The position numbers and the translations under genes were made by a program. From Populus alba (Eukaryota; Streptophyta; Magnoliopsida; Malpighiales; Salicaceae), in contig NC_133295.1 in assembly GCF_005239225.2 (NCBI RefSeq), positions 8,122,001-8,186,000 of the forward strand: 64,000 bases of DNA, read 5' to 3'. Below are positions 32,973 to 53,414 of this stretch, piece by piece; within the stretch, counting starts at the first letter, position 1; every line of letters starts with the position of its first letter. The notes below the pieces were generated by a model. It did not search any database. It was not told the DNA's origin and saw only the letters and a list, made by a program, of their open reading frames with translations.

Positions 32973-33239
32973 TCCTCATAATCACCCCCACTTTGGCCTT
33001 TCAGCCCCCACTGCCGTGGTTTGATTTCAATTCAGCCCCAACCTTTGTCGCATCTTGGGTACGTGTTCCGGCCATGCTACCACGTTTTGCCACCTTGTCA
33101 AGTCAGCCACACACGTTCCCCATCGTGGAATTCATTCTTTCCGTCGTCTTCGTCATGGCTTGCATTTGGAATTTAAGTTCTACATCGGGAGGGTGCGGCG
33201 TGTTGTTTCGATCTGACATGATAGTACCTGTAAAAATTG

Positions 33240-33430
33240 TGATGCGGACTAGCCCAGAAACACCAGCAAGGACCCATTACATGTTCCAAATAGACCAATG
33301 ACTCGGTCCAAGACAAAGACATTGAAAGACGCATTGAATGCATTGGTTTTGAAGGTTTCCACCAAGTCAGAATTGGAAGGTCCATTGGAGTATCAAGAGG
33401 AGATCCTAGTACATCTTATCCTTGTGGAAG
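33240..33430 (+). repeat. gypsy-type LTR fragment, 5' part
   Basis: It starts TGATGCGGAC and matches the start of the copy B LTR (reverse of 22822-23012), including the Pol-tail frame. It is interrupted after GGAAG by the Athila element and continues at 54797. No purine tract lies before it: it joins the truncated 1538-bp unit directly. Confidence 0.85.
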
Positions 33431-35164
33431 TGATTAGTACTTAAAAGTGCATGTTTATCAAGGTTTTATATCATCATTTTGCACTTGAAGTATCAATAAC
33501 TCCTTAACTAAAGCATGTTTTATAATAACAAGTTTAATATTATAAGATACCTTAATTTATGGTAAATGCTCATTTTAAATGCAGGACTATCACATAAATA
33601 AAAGGATTGATTGATGAGTTTAAGCATTGAAAGTTAAAGGACAAAGAGATGGCCAAACTTAGAAAAGAGATGTCGGTGCAGTCCAAACCGGAACATTGCT
33701 CGGTAATTGGATCATATCTGGAGCTCTAGATTTCGGATTTAGGTCCACTTTATATGGATGGAAAGGTAAGACAAAAGCCTACAACTTTCATGAGGAGCCC
33801 AAGATTTGAAAAGGTCGTTTTGAAGTCCAAATTGAAGGAACAACGAAGAAGTCCGAAGCTGTCCTGCAGCCCAAATACTATTTAGTGTTCAGCCCATATC
33901 TTGAGTTCTAGAAGTCCAAATGACCTCATCTTTTTTTTTGTTGGAAAGCTGAGACAATTTCCTAGAACATTCTTGAGGATTCTGGGCAAATTATGATGTT
34001 AGCAATGACGTCTTGATCAGACAAGAAGATAAGGATTGTTATCTAGTCAAGATGTGGCCACCCACTCATCAATTAGTCAACAAATCAATAGTTCCAAATT
34101 TTGGCCTATAAAAGGAGCACTTACCATGTATTGAGGCATCTTGGTTTCCAGATCAAGATCATGCTCTTGCTTTCTCTCTTTGTATTGCTTATGTTTTGCT
34201 TTCATTAATATCAAGTTTATGCACTTAATTTCCTTTCCTTTACTTAGTTAACTTCTTTCTCATTTATGTTCTTACCTTGTTCATTTATGTTTCTTTCTTT
34301 CATTATGTTTAGCTAAGTTAATTATGTCAAGGTGAAAAGGGTACACTAATGGTGTAAGAATAAGTATAATATAAACTTAACATGGACCTTAACGTTGGAT
34401 ACTAACATGTTTTATATTTGTTATCTTGTTCACTTTTAATACTTTGCTTGTTAAATGGTTAATCTAGATTTATGTTGTATAACACTTGGTACAACAAATA
34501 CTTGGTACTTTCATAGCCCATACTGTATGGTATAACCGACACCTGAGCTATGAAAGGGACTTGATTTGTTGTTAACATAAGTTATAATCATGAATGCCTG
34601 CCAACATTTACAAGTATTAGCTTTATTCGAATAAGATAACTAATGTAATCATGTTAACAATTTATAATCTGATGGGAACCTCCTTTATGTGTGATTTCCA
34701 ATTGAGTAATAAGAGTTTATATTATACTTGTTTGAAGTACCGTTAGTGGATCCTCTAACCTTGACATTCGTTTTTATCATTGGTTAATCCTTACATTAAT
34801 CTTCCAACTCAAAGTTCTCATTAATTTCTTCATCTTCTTCTATTACTACTACTACTACTATTGTTATTATTATTATTGTTATTGTTGTTATTTACATTCT
34901 GTAATATATCCCTTTGATCTTTTCATAAACTCAGTATATAGGCTGGAAACCTGTGACCCGGTCTTTTGGATCATTCTCAGGAGTAACAACGCCACGTACT
35001 GAGTATTGTAATTATTATTGTTATTATTATTGTTGTTGTTGTTGTTTTGTTATTTATAATTTATACAATTAACCTCTCTGTGGTTCGACCCCGGTCTTGC
35101 TGGGTTATTTATTACTTCGACACTCCTGCACTTGGGAAAAGACATCAAGCTTTTGATCATGTCA
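33431..35164 (+). repeat. 5' LTR of Athila (+) (1734 bp)
   Basis: It runs from TGATTAGTACTT to GATCATGTCA. A TATA box is at 34107, and the late part has ACT/ATT/GTT trinucleotide runs and the GGTTCGACCCCGGTCTTGC stretch before the end. Confidence 0.95.
34107..34114 (+). promoter_or_regulatory. TATA box of the Athila 5' LTR
   Basis: TATAAAAG in the context GGCCTATAAAAGGAG. The same box is in the 3' LTR at 53738-53745 and on the - strand in the inverted copy at 55932-55939. Confidence 0.8.
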
Positions 35165-35170: not shown

Positions 35171-35188
35171 TGGCGCCGTTGCCGGGGA
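35171..35188 (+). other. primer binding site, tRNA-Asp type
   Basis: TGGCGCCGTTGCCGGGGA lies six bases after the LTR end. This Asp-type primer site is what is known for Athila elements. Confidence 0.93.
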
Positions 35189-35395
35189 GGTAAATTCTTG
35201 TATAAATTATAATATTTAATTTATTTTCTCTTTTCTCTTTTCATTTTATCTATTTTTGTTTCCTTTGTTTTGTTTTGTTTCTTTTTCTTCTATTTTCTTT
35301 TCTTGCTTTTATTCTCTTCTTACACGTGCATGAGAGTTTGGTCACGTACATTAAGTGGTAGACTTTGTAGGGTATCCTCATCATTTTCAGAAAAT

Positions 35396-38300
35396 ATGGC
35401 CGAAGAAGATAATCAATCACTTCATAATGAGAATAATGAGAATAACCGTATGAGAACACTTAGAGACCACATGAATCCCACAAGAACAAGTGCACCCTCA
35501 TGCATAGTTTTCCCTCCTGATGCATCTCATTTTAATTTTAAGCCAGACATTATTCAACTTTTACCATCTTTTCATGGCTTAGACTTAGAAAATCCATACT
35601 TGCATTTAAGGGAATTTGAGGAGGTCTGTAATACCTATAATGACTCAAATTGTAGCATGAACACCATTCGATTAAAGCTTTTTCCTTTTTCATTAAAAGA
35701 TAAAGCTAAAACATGGCTACAAAATTTGAGACCAGGATCCATTCGTGCTTGGGATGATATGCAACAACAATTTTTAAAGAAGTTTTTTCCATCTCACAGA
35801 ACAAACTCTTTCAAAAGACAAATCATCACTTTCACTCAAAAACCAGGAGAAACATTTTACCAATGTTGGGATAGGTATCGAGATTTGCTTAATACTTGCC
35901 CACATCATGGTTTTGAAACATGGAGATTGGTTTCACATTTTTATGAAGGTTTAACACCTAGAGATAGGCAAATGGTTAAATTGATGTGCAATGGAACTTT
36001 CGAAGATAAAGACCCTAATGAAGCAATGGAGTACCTAGACTTGCTAGCCGAAAATGCTCAAAATTGGGACACCACAGGTACTTATGAGGCACCAGGTAAA
36101 ACTCAACCTCATACATCTAGTGGAGGTATGCACAACCTTAGGGAAGATCATGACCTCCAAGCCAAGTTTGCATCTTTAGCTAGAAAAGTCGAAGCACTTG
36201 AATTGAAAAAGAGTGGTCAATTAAAATATGTTCAAGACATTGTGTGTCAAATCTGTGAAACCAAGGAACACTCAACAAATGATTGTCCAACTTTGCCTTC
36301 TTTTAAGGAATGCCTCCATGAACAAGCCCATGCTTTAAACAGTTTCCAAAGACCCAACCATAACCCATACTCCCAAACGTATAATCCTAGTTGGAGAAAT
36401 CACCCAAATTTTAGTTGGAAGAGTGATAGCAACAATGCACAAACTTCACATCCACCGTTTCAAGCACACCATAATTTCCAAAATTCTCATGGATATGCAC
36501 CTCCTTATGCTCCACCTCCTAGAAGAAATTTTGAGGAAACATTGCATGCATTCATTGAAAAGCAGGAGACAATCAACACTCAACTTGCTCAAAGCATGAC
36601 CGATTTTAAAGATGCTCTTGCAAAATTAACATCTGCTCTCAGTTTCCAAGAGAAAGGTAAGTTTCCTTCTCAACCACAGCAAAATCCAAAGAGGCAATAC
36701 AATGCAAATGCAAGTAGTTCTGGAAGCCAACACATGGATCAAGTCAAATCAGTCATCACTCTTCGTAGTGGTAAGGTTATTGAAAAACCTATTCTAGAAC
36801 CTTGTGAGAAAGATGATGAGTCTATCTCTGAGGGTAAGGAAGGGGTTGAACCTGAACATTGCAAAGAAAAAGCTGATTCCCCGCCAGCACTTCCATTTCC
36901 TCATGCCATGATCAAACAAAGGAAAGTTAGTCACAACTCTGAAATCTTTGAAATTTTCAAACAGGTAAGGATCAATATACCTTTGTTGGATGCTATTAAA
37001 CAGGTTCCTTCCTATGCTAAATTTTTGAAAGATCTGTGCACTGTGAAGAGAAAATTGAATGTGAAAAAGAAAGCATTTTTAGCCGAACAAGTAAGTGCCA
37101 TTCTTCAGAACAATAATGCTTTGAAATATAAAGACCCTGGTTGTCCTACAATTTCTTGCTTTATTGGAGAACATAAAATTGAAAGAGCCTTACTTGATCT
37201 TGGAGCTAGTGTGAATTTACTTCCATATTCAGTTTTTCAGAGTCTCAATCTAGGTGAGTTAAAACCAACCTCTGTAACTCTTTTACTCGCCGATAGATCT
37301 GTAAAAGTGCCTAGAGGAATAATTGAAGATGTGTTGGTACAAGTTGATAAATTCATTTATCCTGTGGATTTTGTTGTCTTGGACACGCAACCTGTTGAAG
37401 CATGTAATTCAATTCCTGTCATTTTAGGACGTCCATTTCTTGCCACTTCTAATGCATTGATTAATTGTAGGAATGGACTGATGAAGCTATCATTTGGAAA
37501 CATGACATTGGAGATGAATATTTTCAACATTTACAAGCAACCTGGAGATGATAATGATTTACAGGAAGTGGACTTTATTGAAAAATTAGTTCATGATCAA
37601 TTTCAAACCACTTCTAGTGAAACTGAGATTGATGAATCTGATGATTTGCAAATGGTCTACTTTCAGGAATCAAAGGCATGCAATTGGAGACCACAAATTG
37701 AAGAATTGCCACCACGATCAATTGAGCCCATACCTTCAAGTGTTCAACCACCAAAACCTGAATTGAAGCCGTTACCATTTAATCTCAAATACTCATTTTT
37801 GGGAGAAAATGAAACTTTTCCGGTAATAATCTCTTCCAAACTTAATGCGCATCAAGAAGGTAAGTTATTACAGACTCTGAAAATGCACAAAAATGCATTA
37901 GGATGGACCATAGCTGACATAAAAGGAATTAGCCCTTTGATTTGCACACACAGGATTTATTTGGAGGAAAATTCTAAACCCTCTAGAGAAATGCAACGAA
38001 GGCTTAATCCTAATATGAAAGAAGTAGTGAAAAATGAAGTCATTAAGCTTCTAGATAATGGAATCATTTATCCTATTTCTGATAGCAAATGGGTAAGTCC
38101 TACCCAAGTTGTACCCAAAAAGTCTGGAGTCACTGTGATAACAAATGAGAAAAATGAGTTAATTCCAACTAGGACTGTTACGGGTTGGCGCATGTGCATT
38201 GACTATAGGAAACTTAATTCAATGACTAGAAAAGATCATTTCCCTTTACCTTTCATGGACCAAATCCTAGAAAGAGTTGCAGGTCATGAATTTTATTGTT

Positions 38301-39079
38301 TCCTAGATGGTTATTCAGGTTACAATCAAATTGAAATTGCATTGGAAGATCAAGAGAAGACTACTTTCACATGTCCATTTGGTACTTTTGCATATCGAAG
38401 GATGCCTTTTGGATTATGTAATGCACCAGCCACGTTTCAAAGATGCATGCTTAGCATATTCAGTGATATGGTTGAACGTTTTCTTGAAATTTTTATGGAT
38501 GATTTTTCTGTTTTTGGTGATTCATTTGATGATTGTTTGACTAACTTAGAAAAGGTTTTGAGCAGGTGTGAAGAGAAGAATCTTGTACTGAATTGGGAAA
38601 AATGTCACTTTATGGTAACAAACGACATCGTACTTGGTCACATTGTTTCATCGAAAGGAATTGAGGTTGACAAATCTAAAATCGAGTTAATTGCCAACTT
38701 ACCAACACCAAAATCTGTTAAAGATGTTAGATCATTCTTAGGACATGCTGGTTTTTACAGAAGGTTCATCAAAGATTTTAGTGTAATATCTAAGCCCTTG
38801 AGTAACCTTCTAACAAAGGATAATATTTTTGAATGGACTGAACATTGTGAGGAAGCCTTTGTTAAACTTAAAAACTTGCTTACTTCTGCTCCTGTCATTC
38901 AACCTCCTGATTGGTCATTACCTTTTGAAATAATGTGTGACGCTAGTGATTATGCCGTGGGTGCTGTCTTGGGACAAAGGAAAGATAAGAAACCTTATGT
39001 GATTTACTATGCAAGTAAAACTTTAAATAGTGCTCAAATGAATTACACTACCACTGAAAAAGAATTACTTGCAGTATAG
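35396..39079 (+). CDS. gag-pol: Athila Gag-Pol (Gag, protease, RT, RNase H start), 1227 aa
   Basis: ATG 35396 ([10 protein letters not shown]) is chosen; the frame is open upstream but lies in a T-rich leader. The Gag capsid region is at about 70-210 ([31 protein letters not shown]). A zinc knuckle, [14 protein letters not shown], is near 284. Protease with [13 protein letters not shown] is near 600 and VILGRPFL near 680. RT has [26 protein letters not shown] near 930 and catalytic [10 protein letters not shown] near 1033. RNase H starts at [18 protein letters not shown] near 1180. The frame ends at a TAG caused by a 2-bp insertion (GTATAGTA) at about 39074-39079. The inverted copy has the same change. 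Pol continues in another frame. Confidence 0.93.
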
Positions 39080-40659
39080 TATTTGCATGTGACAAGTTCA
39101 GATCTTATCTTGTTGGCTCACCTGTTATTGTTTTTAGTGATCATGCAGCATTGAAATATCTTCTCTCTAAGAAAGATTCTAAGGCTAGATTGGTGCGGTG
39201 GATTTTGTTACTTCAAGAATTTGATATCACAATCAAAGACAAGAAAGACACCGAAAATGTTGTCGCGGATCATTTGTCAAGATTGACAACCGATTCGAGA
39301 TCTGACATTACACCAATCGATGACTACTTTCCTGATGAATCTTTATTTTCTGTCTCTACGATGCCTTGGTTTGCTAATATTGTTAATTTTCTTGTTTCAG
39401 GACAATTGCCAGCTCATTGGAGTACCCAAGACAAAAGAAAGTTCTTGAACGAAGTGAAGAACTTTTATTGGGATGACCCTTATTTATTCAAATATTGTCC
39501 TGATCAAATATTTCGAAGATGCATTCCTGACAATGAGGTAAGTAGTGTCATTAAATTTTGTCATTCTGAGGCATGTGGGGGTCATTTCTCATCAAGAAAG
39601 ACAACTGCAAAAATCTTACAAAGTGGATTCTATTGGCCCACCATGTTCAAAGACTCACATGCATTCTGTAAGATTTGTGAAAATTGTCAAAAGTTGGGAT
39701 CTATTTCGAAACGTCACATGATGCCTTTAAATCCTATTCTTGTCATTGAGATCTTTGATTGTTGGGGTATAGATTTCATGGGTCCATTTCCTCCATCATT
39801 TGGTTTCTTGTACATATTGGTCGCAGTAAATTATGTTTCAAAATGGATAGAGGCAATTCCAAGTCGAACCAATGATCACAAAATAGTGATAAAGTTTTTG
39901 AAAGAAAACATTTTAAGTCGATTTGGAATCCCTCGAGCCATGATAAGTGACGGTGGAACACACTTTTGCAACAAGCCATTTGAGTCTTTAATGAAGAAAT
40001 ATGGAATCACACATAAAGTTGCCACCCCTTATCACCCTCAGACAAGTGGACAAGTAGAGCTTGCTAATAGGGAGATCAAACAGATCTTGGAGAAAACAGT
40101 GAACCCTAATAGGAAAGACTGGTCTTTAAGACTTAATGATGCACTTTGGGCTTATCGAACTGCTTATAAAACATCATTAGGTATGTCACCTTATAGACTA
40201 GTCTATGGAAAACCTTGTCACTTGCCTGTGGAAATTGAACATAAAGCTTATTGGGCTATTAAAGCTTTCAATTCAAGCCTTGATGATGCTAGTCAGCTGC
40301 GAAAATTGCAAATAAATGAGCTTGAGGAAATAAGAAATGATGCATATGACAATTCAAAAATTCATAAAGCAAGAATTAAAGAGTTTCATGACAAGAAAAT
40401 ACTGAGAAAAACATTCAATGTTGGTCAAAAAGTCTTGCTTTATAATTCTCGACTCCATTTATTTCCTGGAAAACTAAGAACAAGATGGAGCGGTCCTTTT
40501 ATTGTGAAACATGTGTATCCATATGGGGCCTGTGATATTGAGAATCCAAAGAATGGCAATGTTTTCAAGGTAAATGGGCATCGTTTGAAAGTTTATTTTG
40601 ACAATTTTTCGGTTGAAAATGACTCTATTGAATTGAGTGATCCTGTATATAAAGATTGA
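39079..40659 (+). CDS. pol: Athila RNase H end and integrase (continuation of Pol)
   Basis: This is the rest of Pol after the 2-bp shift; it has no start of its own. It opens with the end of RNase H ([25 protein letters not shown]). Integrase has an HHCC zinc region ([20 protein letters not shown]), then the DD35E core: [16 protein letters not shown] and [11 protein letters not shown], with 35 residues between the second Asp and the Glu. The C-terminus ([36 protein letters not shown]) is typical of Athila. All catalytic residues are kept. No residue differs from the inverted copy by eye. Confidence 0.92.
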
Positions 40660-40853: not shown

Positions 40854-41402
40854 ATGGACACCACTCTTGAAAAGTTGAAAAGGTATTTTCCCGCTTTGCC
40901 TCCAAATGCGATTAATAACATTTACCGTGCTAGGTGTGCAAGATTGAGGTTGTTAATGAATCATGGAATTCCTGAAGATATCCGTTGGTTAATTGAAGCA
41001 AAGGTTCGATTATCAGGTGAGTCATCCAATTCTTTCATTTCACACATGCCTGGAACAGGTAAAAGCACTTTTGCAAAGAAACGTCGTGCAAAACGACTGA
41101 AAGTCTGTCATCGATGTGCCAGATGGACTTGTAATATGACATGTCATTCTTTAGGAATGGTATCTGTAAACCGTGAAGATAAGATACAATTCATTAAGGA
41201 TGGCCTGAGTAAGGGGTCTTTAGATAATCTTTTGTTGACCCTTGAGACGCATCCTAGTGGAGATGTGCATCGTGTAATTCATGATTTATGGCCACAATTC
41301 CATAAAGAACATGATCGACTTAGTCTTGGGAATCTGACTAAAAAAGACCCTGTTTGCCAGTTTTTAAGAAAACTGGATGGGAAGCCTATCCCCGACCCAT
41401 AG
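40854..41402 (+). CDS. unknown Cys-motif ORF of Athila, env position (182 aa)
   Basis: I do not recognise a named family. ATG 40854 (MDTTLEKLKRYFPALPP) is used; ten more codons upstream are open but lack an ATG. A basic stretch (KKRRAKRLK) precedes a Cys cluster CHRCARWTCNMTC (CX2CX4CX3C), perhaps metal-binding. The C-terminal half is acidic-basic (LETHPSGDVHRVIHDLWPQF). No signal peptide or membrane segment is seen, so it is not a classic env protein. The inverted copy has the same ORF with a few substitutions and a one-base loss near the end. It sits where Athila elements carry env-like or extra ORFs. Confidence 0.7.
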   Translation: MDTTLEKLKRYFPALPPNAINNIYRARCARLRLLMNHGIPEDIRWLIEAKVRLSGESSNSFISHMPGTGKSTFAKKRRAKRLKVCHRCARWTCNMTCHSLGMVSVNREDKIQFIKDGLSKGSLDNLLLTLETHPSGDVHRVIHDLWPQFHKEHDRLSLGNLTKKDPVCQFLRKLDGKPIPDP

Positions 41403-41657
41403 AGGGCGTTTAAGCCGTTCTTGGACGTAAAACCAAGGGAAGATGTGAGCCACAATCACAACTACCTGTACATACATGCTTTTTCAAAATAAATAATTAA
41501 TAAAGAGAGAGAGAGAGAGAGAGAGTTTGTGAGACTACAGCTGGCCTACATATAGGTGGTATGATTGCATTTTCACTTTTTCATCTATAAATTCTTCTCT
41601 TCCTTCCCTTCATTTCTACTCATCCCATATATTCATCAAATATAGAAGTGTGTAGAA
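41403..41657 (+). promoter_or_regulatory. promoter-like region before the LOG gene
   Basis: AATAAATAATTAATAAA (possible polyadenylation signals) lies at about 41488-41504. Then come a run of GA dinucleotides (about 41504-41525) and a TATA box (CTATAAATTC, TATAAA at 41586-41591) about 67 bp before the LOG ATG, followed by a CT-rich leader. This is the layout of a plant core promoter. No activity can be shown from sequence. Confidence 0.55.
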
Positions 41658-42311
41658 ATGGCAGGTTCCTCAAGTCATCATATAAGAAATATTTGTGTTT
41701 TCGGTGGATCCAGTTCTGGGAAAGAAAAAGAGTTTTTAGAATCAGCAAATCATCTTGGTCGGGTACTAGCTGAGAGAAAGATTCATTTAGTGTATGGGGG
41801 AGGCAGCCTTGGGTTAATGGGAGGTGTGTCAATGGCTGCATTTTTAGGAGGCAGTCAAGTTTTGGGGGTTGTCCCCAAAGCTTTAGCAACTGGGGACATC
41901 ATTGGAAAAACAATTGGAGAGGAACTACAGGTCCCAACAATGTCTGACCGACTGAATACCATGTTTAACCATGTTGATGCCTTCATTGCCTTACCAGGTG
42001 GTCTGGGCACATTGGAAGAGATCTTTCATATTTCATCTTGGGCCCAACTGCACATTCACCATAAACCTATAGGTTTGTTAAATGTTAATGGTTTTTATGA
42101 TAAGTTGTTGTCTTTCCTTGATCAAGCTGTGGAACAGGAATTTCTAACATCTTCGGCACGACGAATCATAATCTCTGCTGCTACTGCTGAACAATTGATT
42201 GACCAACTACAATCTTTCATCCCTGTCATTGATCCCTGCATGAGTCGTCTAGATTGGTCAACTAAGGAAAGCCGTAAAAAGCTTAGATTAGATTTGAGCC
42301 TTCATCTGTGA
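41658..42311 (+). CDS. LOG: LOG-type cytokinin riboside 5'-monophosphate phosphoribohydrolase
   Basis: LOG enzymes release active free-base cytokinin from its riboside 5'-monophosphate in the cytosol. The 217-aa protein is full length and starts MAGSSSHHIRNICVFGGSSS. It has the nucleotide-binding fold motif VYGGGSLGLMG (45-55), the GDIIGKTIGEEL segment (79-90), MSDR with Arg98, and the family signature PGGLGTLEE (113-121) with Glu121. It then has WAQLHIHHKPIGLLNVNG and ends in a basic RLDLSLHL tail. The pattern is closest to plant LOGL10-type members by recollection. There is no intron, whereas host LOG genes have several, pointing to RNA-based capture. It lies between the unknown ORF and the 3' LTR of Athila, same strand. 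Activity is untested. Confidence 0.9.
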   Translation: MAGSSSHHIRNICVFGGSSSGKEKEFLESANHLGRVLAERKIHLVYGGGSLGLMGGVSMAAFLGGSQVLGVVPKALATGDIIGKTIGEELQVPTMSDRLNTMFNHVDAFIALPGGLGTLEEIFHISSWAQLHIHHKPIGLLNVNGFYDKLLSFLDQAVEQEFLTSSARRIIISAATAEQLIDQLQSFIPVIDPCMSRLDWSTKESRKKLRLDLSLHL

Positions 42312-42937
42312 AACCTTGTGTCTTTTGGTTTTATTAATAGCATATTATTTTGTTTTGTTACTTCTTATGTTTGTTTAAGTGTGTTTCAGGTTTGTCATTG
42401 TTCGCTGTTTCAGGTGATGTCTTCTATACTCTATCTTTCTACCTTCGAACATTGAGGACAATGTCTCGTTTTGGTTGGGGGGAGAGGGTAGTAGTTTAAA
42501 AAAAAAAATACTAACTTGCTAACTGTTTTTGCTATTATTAAAACCATTTGACAAAATTGTTATTAGGATGGCAGAGTATGGAATCAATTTTATTGACTCT
42601 AGAGACGCATCTTATTAAGTTTCATTACCAAGGTCTATCATAATACTTCTTGAAATATTCAGGTTTACAAACTCTCACATTGTTATCACTTGATTCTGCT
42701 CATATACTCATTTAACAAGTATTATTAAACCTTCATTTTCACACACACACTTTAACATATGATTGTGGGTTGCACATTGGATTATTACATTAATTATGTT
42801 CTTTTGTTGAAGGTAACAACTAAGGGAAAAGGATAGTATATAATTTGCAAAAAAAAAAAAAAAAAAAAAAAAAAGATAGTATTGATGATAATAAAACGTG
42901 GATAAGTTTAGTTTCGTAGCCTCCCTAACCTAAGCAA
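42312..42937 (+). other. non-coding 3' region of Athila, first part
   Basis: Contains ATTGAGGACAATGTCTCG and a purine tract GGTTGGGGGGAGAGGG (about 42473-42488), common in Athila 3' regions and possibly an extra polypurine tract. An A-run lies at about 42850-42874. No coding sequence is seen. Confidence 0.7.
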
Positions 42938-43530: not shown

Positions 43531-43547
43531 AAGCTGGTTGGGGGGTG
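43531..43547 (+). other. polypurine tract of Athila (+)
   Basis: AAGCTGGTTGGGGGGTG directly precedes the 3' LTR start TGATTAG at 43548. Confidence 0.85.
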
Positions 43548-43905
43548 TGATTAGTACTTAAAAGTGCATGTTTATCAAGGTTTTATATCATCATTTTGCA
43601 CTTGAAGTATCAATAACTCCTTAACTAAAGCATGTTTTATAATAACAAGTTTAATATTATAAGATACCTTAATTTATGGTAAATGCTCATTTTAAATGCA
43701 GGACTATCACATAAATAAAAGGATTGATTGATGAGTTTAAGCATTGAAAGTTAAAGGACAAAGAGATGGCCAAACTTATAAAAGAGATGTCGGTGCAGTC
43801 CAAACCGGAACATTGCTCGGTAATTGGATCATATCTGGAGCTCTAGATTTCGGATTTAGGTCCACTTTATATGGATGGAAAAGTAAGACAAAAGCCTACA
43901 ACTTT
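43548..43905 (+). repeat. 3' LTR of Athila (+), first part
   Basis: The first 358 bp of the LTR, interrupted after ACTTT (43901-43905) by the nested Ogre/Tat-type element. Confidence 0.95.
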
Positions 43906-45931
43906 TGTCGCACCCGACATCGCGGCGGCCCTAAAAAATAATTCTCTTGAATTAATTATGGAAAAAAGAACAGATTCTGGCATCCGGTTCTTTTAGAAAA
44001 AATGTCTTGTTTGAGGAGTCGCCACCTAGTATTATGGTCACTAGGAACCCTAACTGGTCAACAGAGATTCTATGGCTCGGGATTGGTTACGTAAAAGGGA
44101 AGATATTATCACCCCTTAAACGTTCTGCCTAAGGCAGACTGCATTGTTGGTTTTGTCTTAAATTGATAAATATTTATTAATTTATGCTATGATAATTTGT
44201 TTATAATATTCCTGACTCTGGCGTCAGTGAATATTCGAGCTCGAATAATTCCAACTCTGGCGTTGATAAAAATTCGTAGCTAAAAAACAATTAGATCAAT
44301 ATTCTTTATTTCCTACTCTAGCACCAGTGAACAAATAAAAATAAATTTATTTTTATGCATGCATATTTTTTATTTTTCTAGCTAAATAAAATAAAATACA
44401 ACGAATAAAAATAATATAAATTTAAACCGGTATTTTTATTCCTGACTCTGGCGTCAGTGAATAAACCAATAAATTTACATTATTTTTATTCATGATACAC
44501 ATTTTTTTTATTTTTCTACTTTTACTTTTTTTTTTTACTTTTTCTGTTTTTTTTATTTTTTTTCCGGGCTGGGCTCGACCCAGCCCAGCCCAGCCTGGTC
44601 ACTGGCCCAAGCCAGTGACCCGGCTGGGCCACAGCATGAAGCACGCGTGAACTAAATCACGCGTGCACTATCAGATAAAGGAATTAAATGAGAATGTACA
44701 GTAGGAAGTGAATTAAAATGAAAGGCGGTGAAAGAGAAGTTTACTTACCTGGCCTGCTGGAGGCGAAGCGTTCTTGTTCTCTGGCTCTTCTCCGTTTTTG
44801 TTCGCCTGGCTTGCTCTCTGATTTAGGAGACGGAGGCGTGATGGATGACCGGCCAAAACTTTTCTTCGGTTCCTTTGTATGCTCCTGCGTTGTCCTCTTA
44901 TTCTTCCTCTGTTTCGGGTTTTTTCTTGCTGGTTCTCGGTTCCCCTTCTCTGGTTCCGGGTCTGTTTCCTTTCCGTTCTCTGCCCTGTTGTGCTCCCTAG
45001 TTTTTGTGTCTGGGTTTAGCTTCCCCTTCTCTTTCGGTTCTGCTCCCTCCTTTGGGTATTTTTTCGCGGCTTGCCCTCTTCCCCGGTTTTGTGATTCAAC
45101 CCCCCAGTTTTTTTTCTTTGTTCTGTGATTTCTCCCCTTTTGCCGGTTCTCCTTCTCTGGCTTTTATAACCAGAGAATGCCATGCAGTTGCATGCATTTT
45201 AATGCAATAAAGGCATGCGTTTTCTTCTTGTTTTCGGGTGAAGAAGATGAACAGTGCTGATGTTAATGGCAATTTGCGTTTTGATCCTTGAAATTTTGAA
45301 TTTTTTCAGTACAGTCCTTGGGTAACTTTTAATTGAACCCCTGCATCTCAGCGCCATTTACATATTGATCCTTGGATTTTAATTTATTGCAATCGTGCCC
45401 TCAAACGTTAATATTTCTTCAATTAAGTCCCTGATTTCATTAATTTAATTAAATCCAAGTCCAATTAAGTCTCAAAACTTATCAATTCTCCAATTAAACC
45501 CTTAATTGGATTAATTAAATCAATTCCAAGCTTAATTAAGTCTCAAAACTTATCAATTCTCCAATTAAATCCTTGATTGGATGAATTAAATTAATTCCAA
45601 GCTTAATTAAGTCTTAAAACTTATTAATTTTCCAATTAAACCCTTGATTGGATGAACTAAATTAATTCCAAGCTTAATTAAGTCTAAAAATTTATCAATT
45701 CTTCAATTAAACCCTTAATTAAACAAATTAATTCCAAACTTAATTAGATTAATTCTAAAGCTTAATAAAACCCCAAAACCTCCATTAATATTCCCCCTAA
45801 CCCAAAATTTAATTCATTCTTTATTTATTTCATCATCATCATTATTTTTTTTTTCATCATTTTTTTTCATCCTTTTCCATAAATAAAATAATAATAATAA
45901 AAATAAAATGGTCAAAAATTGGGTTATAACA
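43906..45931 (-). repeat. 3' LTR of the nested Ogre/Tat-type element (2026 bp)
   Basis: On the - strand it runs TGTTATAACCC to GGGTGCGACA. It has a TATA box on the - strand at 45161-45168 (TATAAAAG). Two perfect hairpins lie close together: stem GGTCACTGG at 44597-44620 and stem GCACGCGTGA at 44641-44666. Frames such as 44718-45128 lie in the LTR and do not look like genes. Confidence 0.92.
45420..45770 (-). repeat. 71-bp tandem repeats in the LTR
   Basis: AAGCTTAATTAAGTCT-like blocks start at 45457, 45528, 45599 and 45670, exactly 71 bp apart. The same set is in the other LTR at about 52900-53250. Confidence 0.8.
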
Positions 45932-45945
45932 GTTGCCCCCTCTTT
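45932..45945 (-). other. polypurine tract of the nested element
   Basis: The - strand reads AAAGAGGGGGCAAC directly before the LTR start TGTTATAAC, fixing the - strand orientation. Confidence 0.88.
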
Positions 45946-46334
45946 ATAATATTTACTATGCAAAGATATTGGAAAATTTCATTTTCTTTTATCTTTGTGT
46001 AGTAAATTTATAAAGAAAAGTAGATAGAGAGAGAACCCTTTTTCTTTTAGTCTTGAAAACTTTGAAAACAGTAGATGGACACACGACCTTTACAGAGAGA
46101 TGTAGAAATCAAGAAACAAGTCATTTGGGAAGACGACCTATTTTTTTGTTTTTCTTTTGTTTTGTTTTTTTTTTTAAATGGCAGATGGACACATGACCTT
46201 TACAGAGAGATGTAGAAATCAAGAAACAAGTTATTTGGAAGACGACCCACTTTTTTTTTGTATTTTGTATTTTTTTTTTTAGAAGTGTTCTCATTATGAT
46301 GGGTGACCTACCTAAGTAAAAGTAAAAAAAAGAA

Positions 46335-47493
46335 AATGAGGGCTCGAAGGCGCACTCAAAAGAATGTGAGGGCTCAAAGGCACTCAAAGAGGAAAACGAG
46401 TGCTCAAAGGCAACTCAAAGAGGAAAACGAATGCTCAAAGGCACTCAAAGAGGAAAGCGAGTGCTCAAAGGCGCTCCAAAAGGAAAGCGAGTGGTTAGAG
46501 GCACTAGTGCTCAAAGGCACTTGAAGGGAAAAGCGAGTGCTCAGAGGCACTGGTGCTCAAAGGCACTTGAAGGGAAAAGCGAGTGCTCAGAGGCACTGGT
46601 GCTCAAAGGCACTTGAAAGGGAAAACGAGTGCTCAGAGGCACTGTGCTCAAAGGCACTTGAAGGGAAAGGGAGTGCTCAGAGGCACTGGTGCTCAAAGGC
46701 ACTTGAAGGGAAAAGTGAGTGCTCAGAGGCACTGGTGCTCAAAGGCACTTAAAGAGGAAGCGAGTGCTTAGAGGCACTGGTGCTCAAAGGCACTTGAAGG
46801 GAAAGGGAGTGCTCAGAGGCACTGGTGCTCAAAGGCACTTGAAGGGAAAAGTGAGTGCTCAGAGGCACTGGTGCTTAAAGGCACTTAAAGAGGAAGCGAG
46901 TGCTCAGAGGCACTGGTGCTCAAAGGCACTTGAAGGGAAAAGCGAGTGCTCAGAGGCACTGGTGCTCAGAGGCACTAGTGCTCAGAGGCACTGGTGCTCA
47001 AAGGCACTTGAAGGGAAAAATGAGTGCTCAAAGGCACTGGTGCTCAAAGGCACTGGTGCTCAAAGGCACTTGAAGGGAAAGGGAGTGCTTAGAGGCACTG
47101 GTGCTCAAAGGCACTTGAAGGGAAAAGTGAGTGCTCAGAGGCACTGGTGCTCAAAGGCACTTAAAGAGGAAGCGAGTGCTCAGAGGCACTGGTGCTCAGA
47201 GGCACTGGTGCTCAGAGGCACTGGTGCTCAAAGGCACTTGAAGGGGAAGTGAGTGCTCAAAGGCGCTCGAAGAGGCAAACGAGTGCTCAAAGGCGCTCGA
47301 AGAGGAAAGGGAGTGCTCAAAGGCACTCGAAGAGGAAAACGAGGGCTCAGAGGCACTCAAAAAGGAAGGCGAGTGCTTAAAGGCACTCGAAGGAGAAGGC
47401 GAGTGCTCAAAGGCACTTGAAGAAGAAAGTGAGGGCTCAAAGGCGCTCCAAGAAGAAAACGAGTGCTCAAAGGCACTCTAAGAGGAAAGCGCG
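46335..47493. repeat. minisatellite of about 46 bp units
   Basis: About 1.15 kb of GTGCTCAAAGGCACTTGAAG-type units alternating with GTGCTCAGAGGCACTG. In the regular centre, starts at 46507, 46553 and 46599 give a 46-bp period; the edges use a shorter half-unit of about 30 bp. GTGC...GCAC makes each half-unit able to form a hairpin. It explains all long repetitive frames here. Confidence 0.9.
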
Positions 47494-48989
47494 AAGATTT
47501 TTCTAGATGGCCTAATTCTCATGGGCGGCCTGCCCGGGATGAAAAATTCTCAAAAGTGAAAAAATTTCAACAACAATTTCAATCTTTGGCCATTTCAAGT
47601 TGGCCTTCCACTCGATGGATTCTGTTGGAATTTTCTCTAATGAGATTTGCAAAACTCATTGTCCAATGTCTCAAAGTTTAGATGATATGCATGCATCTTT
47701 ACCTGATTTGAAATATAGGCCCCCATTTCTTCTTAGTCTTCTTGTTGCTTGACTGATGAGAACTTGCTACCTTCGATTTTGGGTCATTTTTGTCGCTTAG
47801 CTTCTAGCCCACTCGAGTTGGCCCATATAAGTCTATTTCCAGATTTATTTGCACAACTTAGCATTTATGGTGCCCATCGTGACCCACTTGCTTGCTAAAG
47901 ATTTTCTAACTCGTCAAATATTTTGAGACGATCATTCATTACTCCTCGTCTCACTGATAAAAATATTCGGTGTCACTTGCTGAAAGGATCAAATTGTCTT
48001 TCGTAAACCAAAATGCCCCCTTGTCTTGTTGTAGGAAATATTCCTCTCTTTTTGTAGAAGAGAAAATACAATGTTGCCCCCTTGTACTGGTCATTGCCCC
48101 CAAGTGTGCTTTGTCAGCGACTTAGAAAAATAATGGTTTTAAAAGACCATTCTCTCATTTCTCTTTTTGTTCATTTTGGTGAAGGAATGTGGGTCTAGAA
48201 TGAATCTTGAAATCTTGATCTTGCATTTTGAAAACAAAAATTATTTCGATGTGAATCCAAAACAATTTGCTTTTGAAATCTTACAACTCCTTGGCTATTT
48301 TCTTTCTTGGAAAATAGGTTATTTGCTCTTGTGTTTGGCAATGAGATCTTCAGTGAAAATACATCATGAGATGATCTTTTGTTTCAAAGTGAAGGGCTCG
48401 AGAAAAAGCTCGAGGTTTTGTATGAGAAAAATTTGTCTCTTTTTGAATCATTCATTTTTATCAGCATGAATAATAATGAGTAGTTTATTCTTGATGTCAT
48501 GAATCTTATGAAAAAGCATTCTTTGCATTTGGAGAGCATTGTTTATTATTCTCGGTTGCTTGCTTGCTTGATTAGAAAGGACTTTTACAGGGACGTAACG
48601 TAGGCTGTGGTTGTTGGCTATGAAAGAAAAGGATTCATAAGGCTCAAAGAGTGTTTCAGGGTTTCAAAGACTAAGGATCACTATCAACAGTTTGACTCTT
48701 GACGTCATTTATATTTTCTTTTGTCGCACTTCTTTGATTTGTTGCTTCTTCTTTTTTATTGCTTTGCTAGGGCATACTCACTTTATCTTGGATGTCACGT
48801 TTTCTAGTGATTTAGGCATGCCCCCTAGCATTTGAGTTTCTTGAGCTCTTATGCTTTTTTTTGGCTTTCTTGTAGCTTTTTCACTTTTGTCATTGAAATT
48901 TTCTCTTGCCCCCCAGTGTGGGGTGTGATCCTAGTCGGGATTTTTTCATGAAAGAAAAATTATTCAGGCTCAAAAAGGGATAGCAAGGG
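47494..48989. other. non-coding stretch of the nested element
   Basis: No coding sequence is supported. It contains several C-runs on the + strand (ATGCCCCCTTG, TTGCCCCCTTG, ATTGCCCCCAAG, TTGCCCCCCAG), which are purine-tract-like on the element strand. Confidence 0.6.
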
Positions 48990-49483
48990 ATGTACTTATT
49001 TCAGAATGTGAAAGGAATAACAAAGATGGCCTTTCCTCAATTCAAGCGCAAGCAGTTAAGATCAATAAACTTTGACCTCATCCAGTGTGATGGTTTGGTC
49101 TTTACAAAGATGCATTTCATGGATCATGAGCAACAAGTGTACTACATACCATTATTCATACATTTAAAAACAAATGATTCAAAAGTCATGGGTAAGGGTG
49201 TTTATTCATTTGTTTTTTTTTCTTCTTTTTTTTTGGTTTATAATTTAGTCACCTCAATGATGGAGTTGCTTGATTCAATTGTCATTCTACAAGTAGAATG
49301 TTAAAAATATCATTTTTGAAAGAACATCAAATTATTTTTGAAATCAAAATACCAGACCAATTTTTCAAAATTCCAATAGGGAAATGGATTTTGGTACAAG
49401 AGATGAATTGCGTCTATGAGATCACGCGAGGCTTCAAAGGTGTATTCGTGAGTTCTTATAAGAAAACTCTCTTAAGAAGATGA
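48990..49483 (+). other. possible captured two-exon fragment, antisense to the element
   Basis: Two open frames (48990-49304 and 49298-49483) lie opposite to the element's strand. The first has a compact, protein-like part (FPQFKRKQLRSINFDLIQCD); the second (KISFLKEHQIIFEIK...) ends KKTLLRR. GTAAGG at about 49192 and TTATAATTTAG or TTCTACAAG further on could be splice sites. I do not recognise the family, and chance is possible. Confidence 0.3.
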
Positions 49484-49783
49484 ATAATGCTTGGTCGTAA
49501 ACACGATTGAATGAGAAACTCATTATTTCATTGAAACTTTGGAAAAGAAGTTCAACAACAAAGATCTTATGCCAACATGAATACTGGCATGATAACATAT
49601 AAAGGGGCTAAGCATTTAGCGATCATTCATTGGAATTTTCAGGAATCTTTCAATCATTCATTCTCCTTGACAAAGGGCATCTCTTCAACACTTAGTTTCA
49701 GTCACATGTAGACCATTCTCGACCTATTATCACCATAGCTTTATCTTCAAAATAGTTGATTTCTGGGAGTCGGTGTGAAGGAA

Positions 49784-50815
49784 TTAGCTATAGGAACGAT
49801 AAGTGTCTTGGCAACCACCTTCAGTGAAACCGTTCTTCTTAGTCGGGTTAGCAATCTTACCTAACCCAATGGCTTGTTCAATCCTCTCAGCTATAATAAC
49901 CAGGTCAGTGAAATGTTGTGCAGAGCTTCTAACCAAGTATTCAAAGTACGGAGCTTTAAATGTATTGGAAAATAAATTGATCATCTCTTTTTCCAACATG
50001 GGAGGATTAACTTGTGCAGCTACCTCGCTCCATCTCCGGGCGTATTCTCTTATGGACTCCTTGTTGTTCTTCTCCATAGTTTGCAAGCTTAATCGATCAG
50101 GGCCCACGTCTATATTGAACTTATATTGCCTCATAAAGGCATCAACTAAGTCCTTCCATTTTTTAACCTTAATATTGTCCAACCGCATATACCAAGTGAG
50201 GGCAACGTCACTCAAGCTATCTTGAAAAAAATGAATCAGCAGTTTCTCATCATCAACCACCTCAGCCATTTTGTTGCAGTATGCTTTGAGATGAGTCATA
50301 GGGCATTGAGTTCCCGTATATTTGACGAATTCTGGCTCTCTAAACTTTTTGGGAATGACAATGTTGGGCACCAAACACATATTGACAACTTTCACCAGGT
50401 CACACAAATGGTTTCCCTCAACTGCCCTTATCCTCTTCTCTAGGGTAGTCCATTTTTCCCAATCCTCTTCTTTCAACATCTTGCCCTTTTGAGATTCTTT
50501 CTCGGTGGAATCAGTGGTAGATGAAATTCTTGAAAGGTATGCTGGCTGGAAATGCATAGCTTGTTGAAATTCAGATGACATCCTACTTGCCCCCAGATTA
50601 TGTGGATCGAAATGAGTTACATGCATATCTTCAGGCTGAGCTATAAGTGTTCCTTTTCTGGATTTATCTCTCAAGGCTTGCTCGAGTAGACTAGTAAGCC
50701 TTGCGACTTTTTCTTTAAGATTATCCACCTCTTTTTGATGTTGGGCTTCCAACTGGGCTCTTTCTTCGTTTTCCATTTGTCTTTTTCTCGAACGAGTGTT
50801 ATAAATGAGTTTCAA
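49784..50815 (-). CDS. gag: Gag-like protein of the Ogre/Tat-type element (343 aa)
   Basis: Gag forms the particle that packages the element RNA. ATG 50815 (MKLIYNTRSRKRQ) is followed by a coiled coil (about 15-55, EERAQLEAQHQKEVDNLKEK). The capsid region (about 155-330) has FVKYTGTQCPMTHLKAYCNK, LIHFFQDSLSDVALTWYMRL, WKDLVDAFMRQYKFN and SIREYARRWSEVAAQV, as known for Ogre/Tat Gag. It stops before any zinc knuckle or protease, so it is a C-terminally truncated Gag. It is the only element protein left. Confidence 0.88.
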   Translation of the reverse strand: MKLIYNTRSRKRQMENEERAQLEAQHQKEVDNLKEKVARLTSLLEQALRDKSRKGTLIAQPEDMHVTHFDPHNLGASRMSSEFQQAMHFQPAYLSRISSTTDSTEKESQKGKMLKEEDWEKWTTLEKRIRAVEGNHLCDLVKVVNMCLVPNIVIPKKFREPEFVKYTGTQCPMTHLKAYCNKMAEVVDDEKLLIHFFQDSLSDVALTWYMRLDNIKVKKWKDLVDAFMRQYKFNIDVGPDRLSLQTMEKNNKESIREYARRWSEVAAQVNPPMLEKEMINLFSNTFKAPYFEYLVRSSAQHFTDLVIIAERIEQAIGLGKIANPTKKNGFTEGGCQDTYRSYS

Positions 50816-51345
50816 TGGGGGACCTATATTTCAACCTACTAAATGTAAATCATGCAGTTATGCAAAAATGCTAAAGCAATAATAAAAAAAAAATGCGTAT
50901 GAAATGTGAACTTGCCCTTCACGGGGTGACAACCTAATTGGAAGATCCTAATTATTGAGTGCATCAAGGGATTGGTCATTATCTAGTTTCAAAGGGTCTC
51001 TCGCATGCTCAGTGATCGTCCATGAAAGGTCGATATGAGGCTTACAAGTAGTGTGAAGATAGAGGCCCTGAGTAATATCAGTTTGGCATATCAACCACTT
51101 CCAAGTAAACAATCAAGCGAGAGTTGGATGGTTTCACGAGTCTTACCCAGGCTAAAGCCATTGGGGTACCGTTACTTTCCCACTTATCCTAGGTTGTAAA
51201 CTGTGTGCTCTCAAAGTGATGCATGACAACAAAAATAAGGATGCATGCTAAAGCAGTAAATACAGGAAAATTAAACAAATAAACACAACAAAAAACAAAT
51301 AAAAAAAAGCAATAATAAGACAAAAGACAAAGCTTAATCCCTAGG
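50816..51345 (-). other. leader between primer site and gag
   Basis: About 530 bp of non-coding leader. No other feature is seen. Confidence 0.7.
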
Positions 51346-51363
51346 TCCCCAGTGGAGTCGCCA
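51346..51363 (-). other. primer binding site of the nested element
   Basis: The - strand reads TGGCGACTCCACTGGGGA, three bases from the LTR. It is the form I recall for Ogre/Tat elements (tRNA-Arg type); the tRNA was not checked. Confidence 0.82.
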
Positions 51364-51366
51364 TTC

Positions 51367-53414
51367 TGTCGCACCCGACATCGCGGCGGCCCTAAAAAAT
51401 AATTCTCTTGAATTAATTATGGAAAAAAGAACAGATTCTGGCATCCGGTTCTTTTAGAAAAAATGTCTTGTTTGAGGAGTCGCCACCTAGTATTATGGTC
51501 ACTAGGAACCCTAACTGGTCAACAGAGATTCTATGGCTCGGGATTGGTTACGTAAAAGGGAAGATATTATCACCCCTTAAACGTTCTGCCTAAGGCAGAC
51601 TGCATTGTTGGTTTTGTCTTAAATTGATAAATATTTATTAATTTATGCTATGATAATTTGTTTATAATATTCCTGACTCTGGCGTCAGTGAATATTCGAG
51701 CTCGAATAATTCCAACTCTGGCGTTGATAAAAATTCGTAGCTAAAAAACAATTAGATCAATATTCTTTATTTCCTACTCTAGCACCAGTGAACAAATAAA
51801 AATAAATTTATTTTTATGCATGCATATTTTTTATTTTTCTAGCTAAATAAAATAAAATACAACGAATAAAAATAATATAAATTTAAACCGGTATTTTTAT
51901 TCCTGACTCTGGCGTCAGTGAATAAACCAATAAATTTACATTATTTTTATTCATGATACACATTTTTTTTATTTTTCTACTTTTACTTTTTTTTTTACTT
52001 TTTCTGTTTTTTTTTATTTTTTTTCCGGGCTGGGCCCAGCTCAGCCCACATGGGCTGGGCTCGACCCAGCCCAGCCTGGTCACTGGCCCAAGCCAGTGAC
52101 CCGGCTGGGCCACAACATGAAGCACGCGTGAACTAAATCACGCGTGCACTATCAGATAAAGGAATTAAATGAGAATGTACAGTAGGAAGTGAATTAAAAT
52201 GAAAGGCGGTGAAAGAGAAGTTTACTTACCTGGCCTGCTGGAGGCGAAGCGTTCTTGTTCTCTGGCTCTTCTCCGTTTTTGTTCGCCTGGCTTGCTCTCT
52301 GATTTAGGAGACGGAGGCGTGATGGATGACCGGCCAAAACTTTTCTTCGGTTCCTTTGTATGCTCCTGCGTTGTCCTCTTATTCTTCCTCTGTTTCGGGT
52401 TTTTTCTTGCTGGTTCTCGGTTCCCCTTCTCTGGTTCCGGGTCTGTTTCCTTTCCGTTCTCTGCCCTGTTGTGCTCCCTAGTTTTTGTGTTTGGGTTTAG
52501 CTTCCCCTTCTCTTTCGGTTCTGCTCCCTCCTTTGGGTATTTTTTCGCGGCTTGCCCTCTTCCCCGGTTTTGTGATTCAACCCCCCAGTTTTTTTTCTTT
52601 GTTCTGTGATTTCTCCCCTTTTGCCGGTTCTCCTTCTCTGGCTTTTATAACCAGAGAATGCCATGCAGTTGCATGCATTTTAATGCAATAAAGGCATGCG
52701 TTTTCTTCTTGTTTTCGGGTGAAGAAGATGAACAGTGCTGATGTTAATGGCAATTTGCGTTTTGATCCTTGAAATTTTGAATTTTTTCAGTACAGTCCTT
52801 GGGTAACTTTTAATTGAACCCCTGCATCTCAGCGCCATTTACATATTGATCCTTGGATTTTAATTTATTGCAATCGTGCCCTCAAACGTTAATATTTCTT
52901 CAATTAAGTCCCTGATTTCATTAATTTAATTAAATCCAAGTCCAATTAAGTCTCAAAACTTATCAATTCTCCAATTAAACCCTTAATTGGATTAATTAAA
53001 TCAATTCCAAGCTTAATTAAGTCTCAAAACTTATCAATTCTCCAATTAAATCCTTGATTGGATGAATTAAATTAATTCCAAGCTTAATTAAGTCTTAAAA
53101 CTTATTAATTTTCCAATTAAACCCTTGATTGGATGAACTAAATTAATTCCAAGCTTAATTAAGTCTAAAAATTTATCAATTCTTCAATTAAACCCTTAAT
53201 TAAACAAATTAATTCCAAACTTAATTAGATTAATTCTAAAGCTTAATAAAACCCCAAAACCTCCATTAATATTCCCCCTAACCCAAAATTTAATTCATTC
53301 TTTATTTATTTCATCATCATCATTATTTTTTTTTTTTCATCATTTTTTTTCATCCTTTTCCATAAATAAAATAATAATAAAAAAAATAAAATGGTCAAAA
53401 ATTGGGTTATAACA
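51367..53414 (-). repeat. 5' LTR of the nested Ogre/Tat-type element (2048 bp)
   Basis: Nearly identical to the LTR at 43906. The clearest difference is about 20 extra bases of GGGCTGGGC-type sequence near 52030-52060. The TATA box is on the - strand at 52642-52649. Confidence 0.92.

What the first reader, a model, noticed from the sequence alone, without database searches (positions are those of the whole stretch)
41658..42311. Full-length LOG cytokinin-activation gene inside an Athila retrotransposon
An intact, intronless 217-aa LOG ORF lies between integrase and the 3' LTR, on the element strand, with Arg98 and PGGLGTLEE in place. A retrotransposon that carries a hormone-activating enzyme could change cytokinin levels where it is expressed, or favour its own spread in dividing cells. 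Known gene captures such as maize Bs1 hold gene fragments; a complete ORF is unusual.
Basis: partly seen in the sequence, partly recalled or inferred. Interest (0 to 1): 0.92.

Follow-up and report, generated by a model that had tools for sequence, protein, structure and literature searches.

The report
Poplar retrotransposon carrying a LOG enzyme
A very abundant jumping gene in the white poplar genome carries a complete, conserved copy of a plant hormone-releasing enzyme (LOG) next to a gene that resembles a plant-virus protein, so jumping genes may steer plant hormones, although the enzyme's substrate pocket has changed and its true product is untested.

Summary
In detail: an intact 217-codon LOG-family ORF lies at 41658-42311 in a young, TSD-flanked Athila-type element. 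In copies chosen blind to LOG, 32 of 38 had a full-length LOG, 18 of these open. Variants shared between copies show purifying selection (omega 0.30; other frames 1.26, 1.70). Element-type LOGs from several genera form one clade apart from host LOGs. LOG adjoins ORF3, a relative of carlavirus cysteine-rich proteins; 11 of 20 copies lack RT and the IN core yet keep LOG. Two corrections: a LOG-type (YgdH) domain in Citrus and P. trichocarpa gypsy elements is already in print (PMC9289625); and the catalytic Arg/Glu are kept, but pocket residues Lys and Glu are replaced in the poplar clade, so cytokinin as substrate is unproven. No expression or activity data.

The parts
33431..35164 (+). 5' LTR of element A (TG...CA); TSD GGAAG at 33426-33430
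   Evidence: self-comparison; sequence; LTR pair differs at 2/359 + 8/1376 sites
35171..35188 (+). primer binding site, TGGCGCCGTTGCCGGGGA (tRNA-Asp type; tRNA assignment recalled)
   Evidence: sequence
35396..40659 (+). gag-PR-RT-RH-IN; in this copy two ORFs, 35270-39079 and 39151-40659
40854..41402 (+). ORF3, 182 aa, relative of carlavirus cysteine-rich nucleic-acid-binding proteins
   Evidence: Pfam PF05515 30.5 bits and PF01623 28 bits, both above cut-off; each matched by 22 of 25 family members; 606 homologues
41586..41592 (+). TATA-like TATAAAT, ending 66 bp before the LOG ATG (candidate internal promoter)
   Evidence: in 51 of 52 stretches readable there (two copies were read twice); function inferred
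41640..41645 (+). ATATAG after a pyrimidine-rich tract (candidate splice acceptor for a spliced LOG mRNA)
   Evidence: ATATAGRA in 51 of 52 stretches readable there (two copies were read twice); function inferred
41658..42311 (+). LOG-family phosphoribohydrolase ORF, 217 aa, no intron
42473..42488 (+). internal PPT-like purine run ggttggggggagaggg
   Evidence: reading as PPT inferred
43536..43547 (+). polypurine tract before the 3' LTR
43548..43905 (+). 3' LTR of element A, first part
43903..53414 (.). nested LTR element inserted into A's 3' LTR (own LTRs 43903-45931 and 51364-53414, 98.4% alike)
53412..54796 (+). 3' LTR of element A, second part; TSD GGAAG at 54797-54801
57844..58497 (-). LOG ORF of the inverted copy B, 217 aa, open
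   Evidence: C12:8179847-8180497; L028
54884..56614 (-). 3' LTR of copy B, tail to tail with A; 87 bp lie between the two LTR ends

Best explanation
The LOG ORF is a long-standing accessory gene of an Athila-type Ty3/gypsy lineage of rosid plants (rosid is recalled taxonomy), kept by selection during the element's own replication. It sits in a two-gene 3' module, ORF3 then LOG. Most likely mechanism: the element's RNA (a spliced form, or one started at the TATA-like box) is translated into a LOG-type enzyme that cleaves an N6-substituted purine riboside 5'-monophosphate to the free base. In the cell where the element is active this raises a cytokinin or cytokinin-like base and favours a dividing, meristem-like state that lets new insertions reach the germ line, while ORF3 may blunt RNA silencing or alter host transcription as carlavirus cysteine-rich proteins do. 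Shown: intact gene, element association, copy number, purifying selection, separate clade, ORF3 pairing, retention in elements that lost RT and the IN core, catalytic residues kept, pocket residues changed. Inferred: age, expression route, enzyme activity, substrate, benefit to the element, any ORF3 function.
For: Complete LOG family match with catalytic Arg and Glu. 150 scored matches at 95-100% identity, 140 without an internal stop. LOG-blind sample: 32 of 38 copies carry full-length LOG; shared variants N=14, S=21 against a neutral 23.3 and 10.6, P 0.001, other frames not reduced, like gag-PR (0.24) and ORF3 (0.25) in the LOG-chosen copies. Element-type LOGs form one clade, support 100/100 and 99/96. 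ORF3 and LOG are neighbours in other genera: Acer gene model P0141 joins them; Xanthoceras P0288 and P0135 have consecutive locus tags on one contig length. Copies without RT keep LOG (11 of 20); 8 of these 11 could be dated, LTR differences 0.13-1.02%. Carlavirus CRPs suppress silencing, and CVB p12 causes hyperplasia (passages).
Against: Pocket Lys and Glu, kept in all 17 host or Arabidopsis and 2 bacterial LOGs examined, are replaced in Populus and related element LOGs, so cytokinin may not be the substrate. No RNA, protein or activity data. 14 of 32 LOGs in ORF3-chosen copies are not open over the full length. The selection estimate rests on 35 shared variants from related copies; in the smaller LOG-chosen sample shared variants alone are not significant (N=7, S=9, omega 0.43, P 0.08). 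6 of 38 ORF3-chosen copies showed no LOG in the stretch read. The two named Acer proteins have damaged motifs (P0141 lacks the catalytic Arg, P0143 the PGG). Support for the host side of the rooted tree is weak (82/77).
Confidence: 0.55

Rival explanations
1. The enzyme is kept and active, but not for cytokinin: after the pocket change it became a nucleosidase for another purine monophosphate (AMP, modified RNA breakdown products, or in poplar aromatic N6-benzyl ribotides), serving the element's nucleotide metabolism or another signal.
For: Catalytic Arg and Glu are invariant in the 40 rows, while residues 99 and 124 are both changed in one clade of 16 rows; position 99 is never Lys and 124 never Glu in 118 Populus-type proteins. 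CgLOG was assayed on AMP (PMC4979012 passages). Poplars make aromatic cytokinins by a route that is unclear (PMC7913349 passages).
Against: Element-type rows P0124 and P0127 (Xanthoceras), P0131, P0134 and P0139 keep the full canonical pocket, so the lineage probably began with a cytokinin-type enzyme; substitutions in a pocket do not prove a new substrate. The change is not confined to Populus, which weakens the link to poplar's aromatic cytokinins.
Confidence: 0.27
2. The element-type LOGs are a host gene family (LOGL10-like) that elements captured several times; the poplar element simply picked up a copy.
For: Public annotation calls several of them LOGL10 genes; for most metagenome rows the context was not seen.
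Against: P. trichocarpa LOGL10 P0096 has no match above 85% identity among the 150 scored of 1750 candidates in P. alba; Xanthoceras models contain the gag-PR linker and P0135 has an ORF3 neighbour by locus tag; the Acer model is an ORF3-LOG fusion.
Confidence: 0.09
3. Neutral passenger: a recent capture amplified by chance, intact only because the copies are young.
For: LTRs of the 8 datable copies differ by only 0.13-1.02%; 14 of 32 LOGs in ORF3-chosen copies are not open over the full length; private variants show weaker constraint, omega 0.57.
Against: omega 0.30 for shared variants, with 1.26 and 1.70 in the other two frames; 44 invariant columns across 35 LOGs, elements and hosts together; separate, long-branched clade.
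Confidence: 0.05
4. Selection acts on the host: some copies are domesticated and the poplar uses them.
For: Many open copies; some annotated as genes.
Against: The purifying signal is in variants shared by dispersed insertions. A search for a conserved single-copy locus was not made beyond.
Confidence: 0.04

Closest known systems
Ty3/gypsy elements with a YgdH (LOG-type) domain in Citrus and Populus trichocarpa (PMC9289625, section 12 read; Steinbauerova 2011, seen only as cited there)
   Same: LOG-family domain inside plant gypsy elements, including poplar; probably the same lineage (not tested)
   Different: That section reports a domain hit only. Here: full ORF, anatomy, ORF3 partner, copy numbers, selection, tree, pocket change, carriers without RT
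[quoted passage not shown] PMC7264820 part 1 of 3 read, PMC6317226 passages)
   Same: Position and strand of the extra ORFs, domain order, large non-coding 3' region
   Different: The extra ORFs are a carlavirus-CRP-like protein and a LOG enzyme; PMC6317226 counted only eORFs of at least 250 codons, so 182 and 217 codons would be missed
Plant LOG1-LOG8 enzymes
   Same: Family, PGGxGTxxE, catalytic Arg and Glu
   Different: 47-53% identity to the 11 host rows; separate clade; Lys/Glu pocket pair replaced in the poplar branch; no intron (introns of host LOGs recalled)
Orchid Ty3/gypsy elements with an m6A demethylase domain (PMC9289625, title, abstract start and section 12)
   Same: A whole catalytic domain acquired and amplified by a gypsy element
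   Different: Different enzyme; that acquisition is described as recent, this one looks old
Carlavirus cysteine-rich proteins (CVB p12, PVM and PVH CRP; PMC12172455 and PMC3689765 passages)
   Same: ORF3 matches their Pfam families; basic stretch before a C-x2-C-x4-C-x3-C cluster
   Different: 182 aa, in a retrotransposon; no activity known

Membership tests
LOG phosphoribohydrolases | PF03641/TIGR00730 match and PGGxGTxxE motif | tested here: met
   129 bits, cut-off 27; 168.7 bits, cut-off 96.35; PGGLGTLEE
LOG phosphoribohydrolases | catalytic Arg99 and Glu122 (CgLOG numbering) | tested here: met
   Arg98 and Glu121 in all 40 rows; in 111 and 114 of 118 proteins
LOG phosphoribohydrolases (cytokinin-type) | prenyl/adenine pocket Met96, His97, Lys100, Glu125, Trp129 | tested here: not met
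   Met and Trp kept; Ser, Leu and His stand for His97, Lys100 and Glu125 in the window copy. The full pocket is kept in 5 element-type rows and all 17 host or Arabidopsis rows
LOG phosphoribohydrolases (cytokinin-type) | NCBIfam equivalog NF058542 above cut-off 300 | tested here: inconclusive
   112.8 bits, but a named host LOG7 (P0163) also fails with 131.5
LOG phosphoribohydrolases | activity on cytokinin ribotides | not testable with these tools
   none
Athila clade, Ty3/gypsy | gag, PR, RT, RH, IN order | tested here: met
Athila clade, Ty3/gypsy | no additional RNase H (aRH), which marks Tat (PMC6317226 passages) | tested here: met
   RH at residues 46-174, IN zinc finger from 275, no second RNase H hit in the piece scanned; none elsewhere in the two window ORFs
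Athila clade, Ty3/gypsy | RT/IN phylogeny with reference Athila | not tested
   no reference RTs fetched
Athila clade, Ty3/gypsy | PF03078 Athila ORF-1 | tested here: not met
   no match for ORF3 or LOG; found in only 16% of Athila elements per PMC6317226, so not decisive
Carlavirus CRP / viral NABP (ORF3) | PF05515 or PF01623 above gathering cut-off | tested here: met
   30.5 (cut-off 23) and 28 (20.9) bits; each family matched by 22 of 25 members at E 0.001
Carlavirus CRP / viral NABP (ORF3) | silencing suppression or transcription-factor activity | not testable with these tools
   none
Non-autonomous gag-bearing LTR elements | LTRs and gag kept, RT and IN core lost, recent insertions | tested here: met
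   11 of 20 copies lack RT, RH and the IN core; 8 of them have LTR differences of 0.13-1.02%; 3 keep one ORF of 994-1016 aa

The most novel reading that the evidence does not exclude
This Athila lineage carries a virus-like host-manipulation module: a carlavirus-CRP-type zinc-finger protein that suppresses silencing and pushes cells to divide, plus a LOG-derived enzyme whose pocket was rebuilt for another N6-substituted purine ribotide (in poplar perhaps the aromatic cytokinins whose biosynthesis is unexplained). The element would thereby make the tissue that it needs for transmission, and helper-dependent copies keep the module because it also serves them.
Probability: 0.2. Interest if true: 0.95.

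Novelty: new variant of a known kind. Interest (0 to 1): 0.72.

Why it matters
Extra ORFs of plant LTR retrotransposons are widespread and mostly of unknown use. Here one is an enzyme of a family with a known reaction and assayable substrates, with a change in its pocket that can be placed on a tree, present in over a hundred near-identical copies without a stop. That makes the question 'do retrotransposons manipulate plant hormones or cell fate?' directly testable. The ORF3 link also ties a retrotransposon gene to a family of plant-virus silencing suppressors, in either direction of descent. Practically, some annotated poplar, Xanthoceras and Acer 'LOG' genes look like element genes and would inflate hormone-gene counts.

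Tried and rejected
Recent passenger capture: rejected on tree and selection. Host gene mistaken for element: unlikely. The first selection test used 20 copies that I had picked from a list ranked by LOG protein score, which biases LOG towards conservation (pN/pS LOG 0.236, gag 0.204, ORF3 0.192); I replaced it with 38 copies taken as every fourth row of an ORF3-ranked list. In one search the RH-IN row was read in the wrong frame (omega 1.43 shared); corrected (0.31). The apparent low LOG diversity is partly module exchange: the gag C-terminus/PR differs by 4.6% between the two groups of copies, while LOG, spacer and LTR show no such excess. No relatives in viral contigs or, for ORF3, plasmids. 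A 92-aa host LOG7 query could not show host exons because element copies filled all 150 places; host intron structure is therefore recalled, not tested. ORF3 has no relative of known structure by sequence (best E 0.5). Structure prediction was never available. Loci L001-L008 were not used in any count. From the list, P0092 and P0097 were left out of the 118-protein table because they are fusions; only copies without indels (43 of the 61 loci L009-L069) were tabulated. Two copies lie both in the 20 LOG-chosen and the 38 ORF3-chosen loci (L021/L034, L027/L055), so pooled counts (52, 43) hold them twice. Of the 14 LOGs that I count as not open, L054 has no stop and changes frame only near the end (one search shows the same place matched to residue 213). 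Contig-length coincidences between LOG and ORF3 lists (8723: P0162/P0273; 3394: P0147/P0318) suggest, but do not prove, the same contigs.

Full report
1. Observation. The ORF at 41658-42311 is real, 217 aa, ATG to stop, with no intron. Pfam PF03641 gives 129 bits against a cut-off of 27, and the nearest solved relative is Arabidopsis At2g37210. The element around it, A, has a 5' LTR at 33431-35164, a PBS at 35171, gag-PR-RT-RH-IN, ORF3 (40854-41402), LOG, a PPT at 43536-43547, and a 3' LTR that a nested element splits (43548-43905 and 53412-54796). A 5-bp TSD, GGAAG, flanks A. Its LTRs differ at 10 of 1735 sites. Its own pol frame is interrupted (two ORFs), so copy A need not itself be autonomous.

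2. Which genome. The window is G000:C12, in an assembly of 416 Mb. Contigs C15, C8 and C1 have exactly the lengths of the Populus alba records behind P0003, P0038 and P0082, so it is a white poplar assembly.

3. Copy number and integrity. The LOG protein had 1780 first-look candidates; the 150 scored are all at least 95% identical, and 140 of 150 have no internal stop. This list is ranked by LOG score and so is biased. ORF3 had 1715 candidates, 150 scored. Of the 150 ORF3 places, 66 have one of the 150 LOG places 186-280 bp downstream. To avoid bias I took every fourth row of the ORF3 list, 38 copies, and read the next stretch. 32 of 38 contain a full-length LOG, 6 none in that stretch. Of the 32, 17 are open at exactly 654 bp and one more (L061) is open with an in-frame insertion; 14 are not open over the full length, one of these (L054) changed only near its end.

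4. Selection. In that LOG-blind sample (32 copies plus A), variants whose rarer state is seen in more than one copy are 14 nonsynonymous and 21 synonymous; random placement of the same base changes gives 23.3 and 10.6 (omega 0.30, P 0.001). The same test in the other two frames gives 1.26 and 1.70. Private variants are weaker, 0.57 (all). In the LOG-chosen copies LOG gives 0.43 for shared (7 and 9 variants, P 0.08) and 0.36 for private variants; gag-PR and ORF3 there give 0.24 and 0.25 for shared, 0.43 and 1.30 for private; RH-IN 0.31 and RT 0.08 for shared, 0.51 and 1.00 for private, on few sites. So LOG behaves like the element's own genes. Copies share ancestry, so P values are guides only.

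5. Carriers without RT. Of 20 LOG-chosen copies, 9 keep RT and IN (L022 with a deletion in RT, L028, which is copy B, without the start of the gag segment). The other 11 lack RT, RH and the IN core, but keep gag-PR (L020 only its end; L016 was read from inside it), ORF3 (L009 only its end) and LOG. Three of the 11 keep one ORF of 994-1016 aa that joins gag-PR to the end of IN. Eight of the 11 could be dated by both LTRs and differ by 0.13-1.02%: they moved recently, presumably with enzymes from elsewhere. Between the two groups only the gag C-terminus/PR (4.6%) and slightly ORF3 (2.9%) stand out; spacer, LOG, 3' region and LTR are shared, which I read as continuing module exchange.

6. Descent. 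In trees of 59 and 40 rows, element-type LOGs form one clade (100/100 and 99/96) opposite host LOG1, LOG3, LOG7 and LOG8 rows; in the rooted tree the host side itself has only 82/77. The clade holds Populus, Parasponia, Xanthoceras and Acer rows and unnamed sequences. Context was seen for some: Xanthoceras model P0122 carries the gag-PR linker of this kind of element (24 of 42 identical), and Xanthoceras LOG P0135 and ORF3 P0288 have consecutive locus tags; an Acer model, P0141, is ORF3 fused to LOG, though its LOG lacks the catalytic Arg, and Acer P0143 lacks the PGG. For most unnamed rows context was not seen. Vertical and horizontal spread were not separated.

7. Enzyme. By PMC4979012 (passages) CgLOG uses Arg99 and Glu122 for catalysis, Met96, Lys100 and Glu121 for adenine, and Met96, His97, Lys100, Glu125 and Trp129 for the prenyl group. 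The window protein keeps the Arg, both motif Glu, Met and Trp, but has Ser, Leu and His for His97, Lys100 and Glu125. All 17 host or Arabidopsis rows, 2 bacterial rows and 5 element-type rows keep Lys and Glu; the other 16 element-type rows, one clade (98/95), have neither. Among 118 Populus-type proteins none has Lys at 99 or Glu at 124, while Arg98 stands in 111 and Glu121 in 114. I read this as an active phosphoribohydrolase with a changed pocket rather than decay, but I know of no assay.

8. ORF3. It matches Viral_NABP and Carla_C4 above cut-off; each family is matched by 22 of 25 members scanned; 606 homologues were found among 683 candidates, 120 listed. Carlavirus CRPs are silencing suppressors, and CVB p12 acts as a transcription factor causing hyperplasia (PMC12172455, PMC3689765, passages). 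Searches for print on this link gave nothing: Carla_C4 with retrotransposon, 0 papers; a search requiring three of four terms listed 8 papers, none about it by title and listed start of abstract.

9. Expression signals. A TATA-like box ending 66 bp and an acceptor-like ATATAG ending 13 bp before the ATG are present in 51 of 52 stretches (two copies counted twice). They are young relatives, so this is weak evidence.

10. Novelty. The existence of a LOG-type domain in gypsy elements of Citrus and P. trichocarpa is in print (PMC9289625, section 12). What my searches did not find in print is the intact gene, its pairing with a carlavirus-like gene, its selection, its retention in copies without RT and its pocket change. 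The library lacks most subscription papers; Steinbauerova 2011 was seen only as a citation.

Noticed in passing
window 2932-7498, 13713-16438, 16939-22639, 28203-33239: Several arrays of 1.5-2.3 kb units in direct tandem (about 99% alike) and inverted between arrays, with a duplicated stretch of about 157 bp; they look like LTR-internal-LTR arrays of other elements.
   Followed up: no
window 43903-53414: Nested LTR element inside A's 3' LTR; contains a minisatellite (46332-47491) part of which reads open as a repetitive ORF, and a gag-like ORF on the minus strand (49784-50815, PF03732 39.9 bits).
   Followed up: partly
window 54797-54883: Two insertions of the same family sit tail to tail with only 87 bp between their 3' LTRs.
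   Followed up: partly
G000, e.g. C9:154790, C16:9270384, C3:5517848: Some P. alba LOG matches, 82-83% to the P. trichocarpa form, lie in a longer open frame (248 aa), perhaps a second subfamily.
   Followed up: no
window 40854-41150: Nucleotide diversity is about 4-6% in most of the first part of ORF3 and mostly near 1-2% downstream, suggesting a recombination boundary inside ORF3.
   Followed up: partly
L011 1059-1709: A second LOG copy (91%) lies inverted beside a young one and is broken by stops and a frameshift.
   Followed up: yes
public annotations P0096, P0141, P0146, P0151: Element-type LOGs are annotated in databases as host LOG genes, which may distort LOG gene counts.
   Followed up: partly
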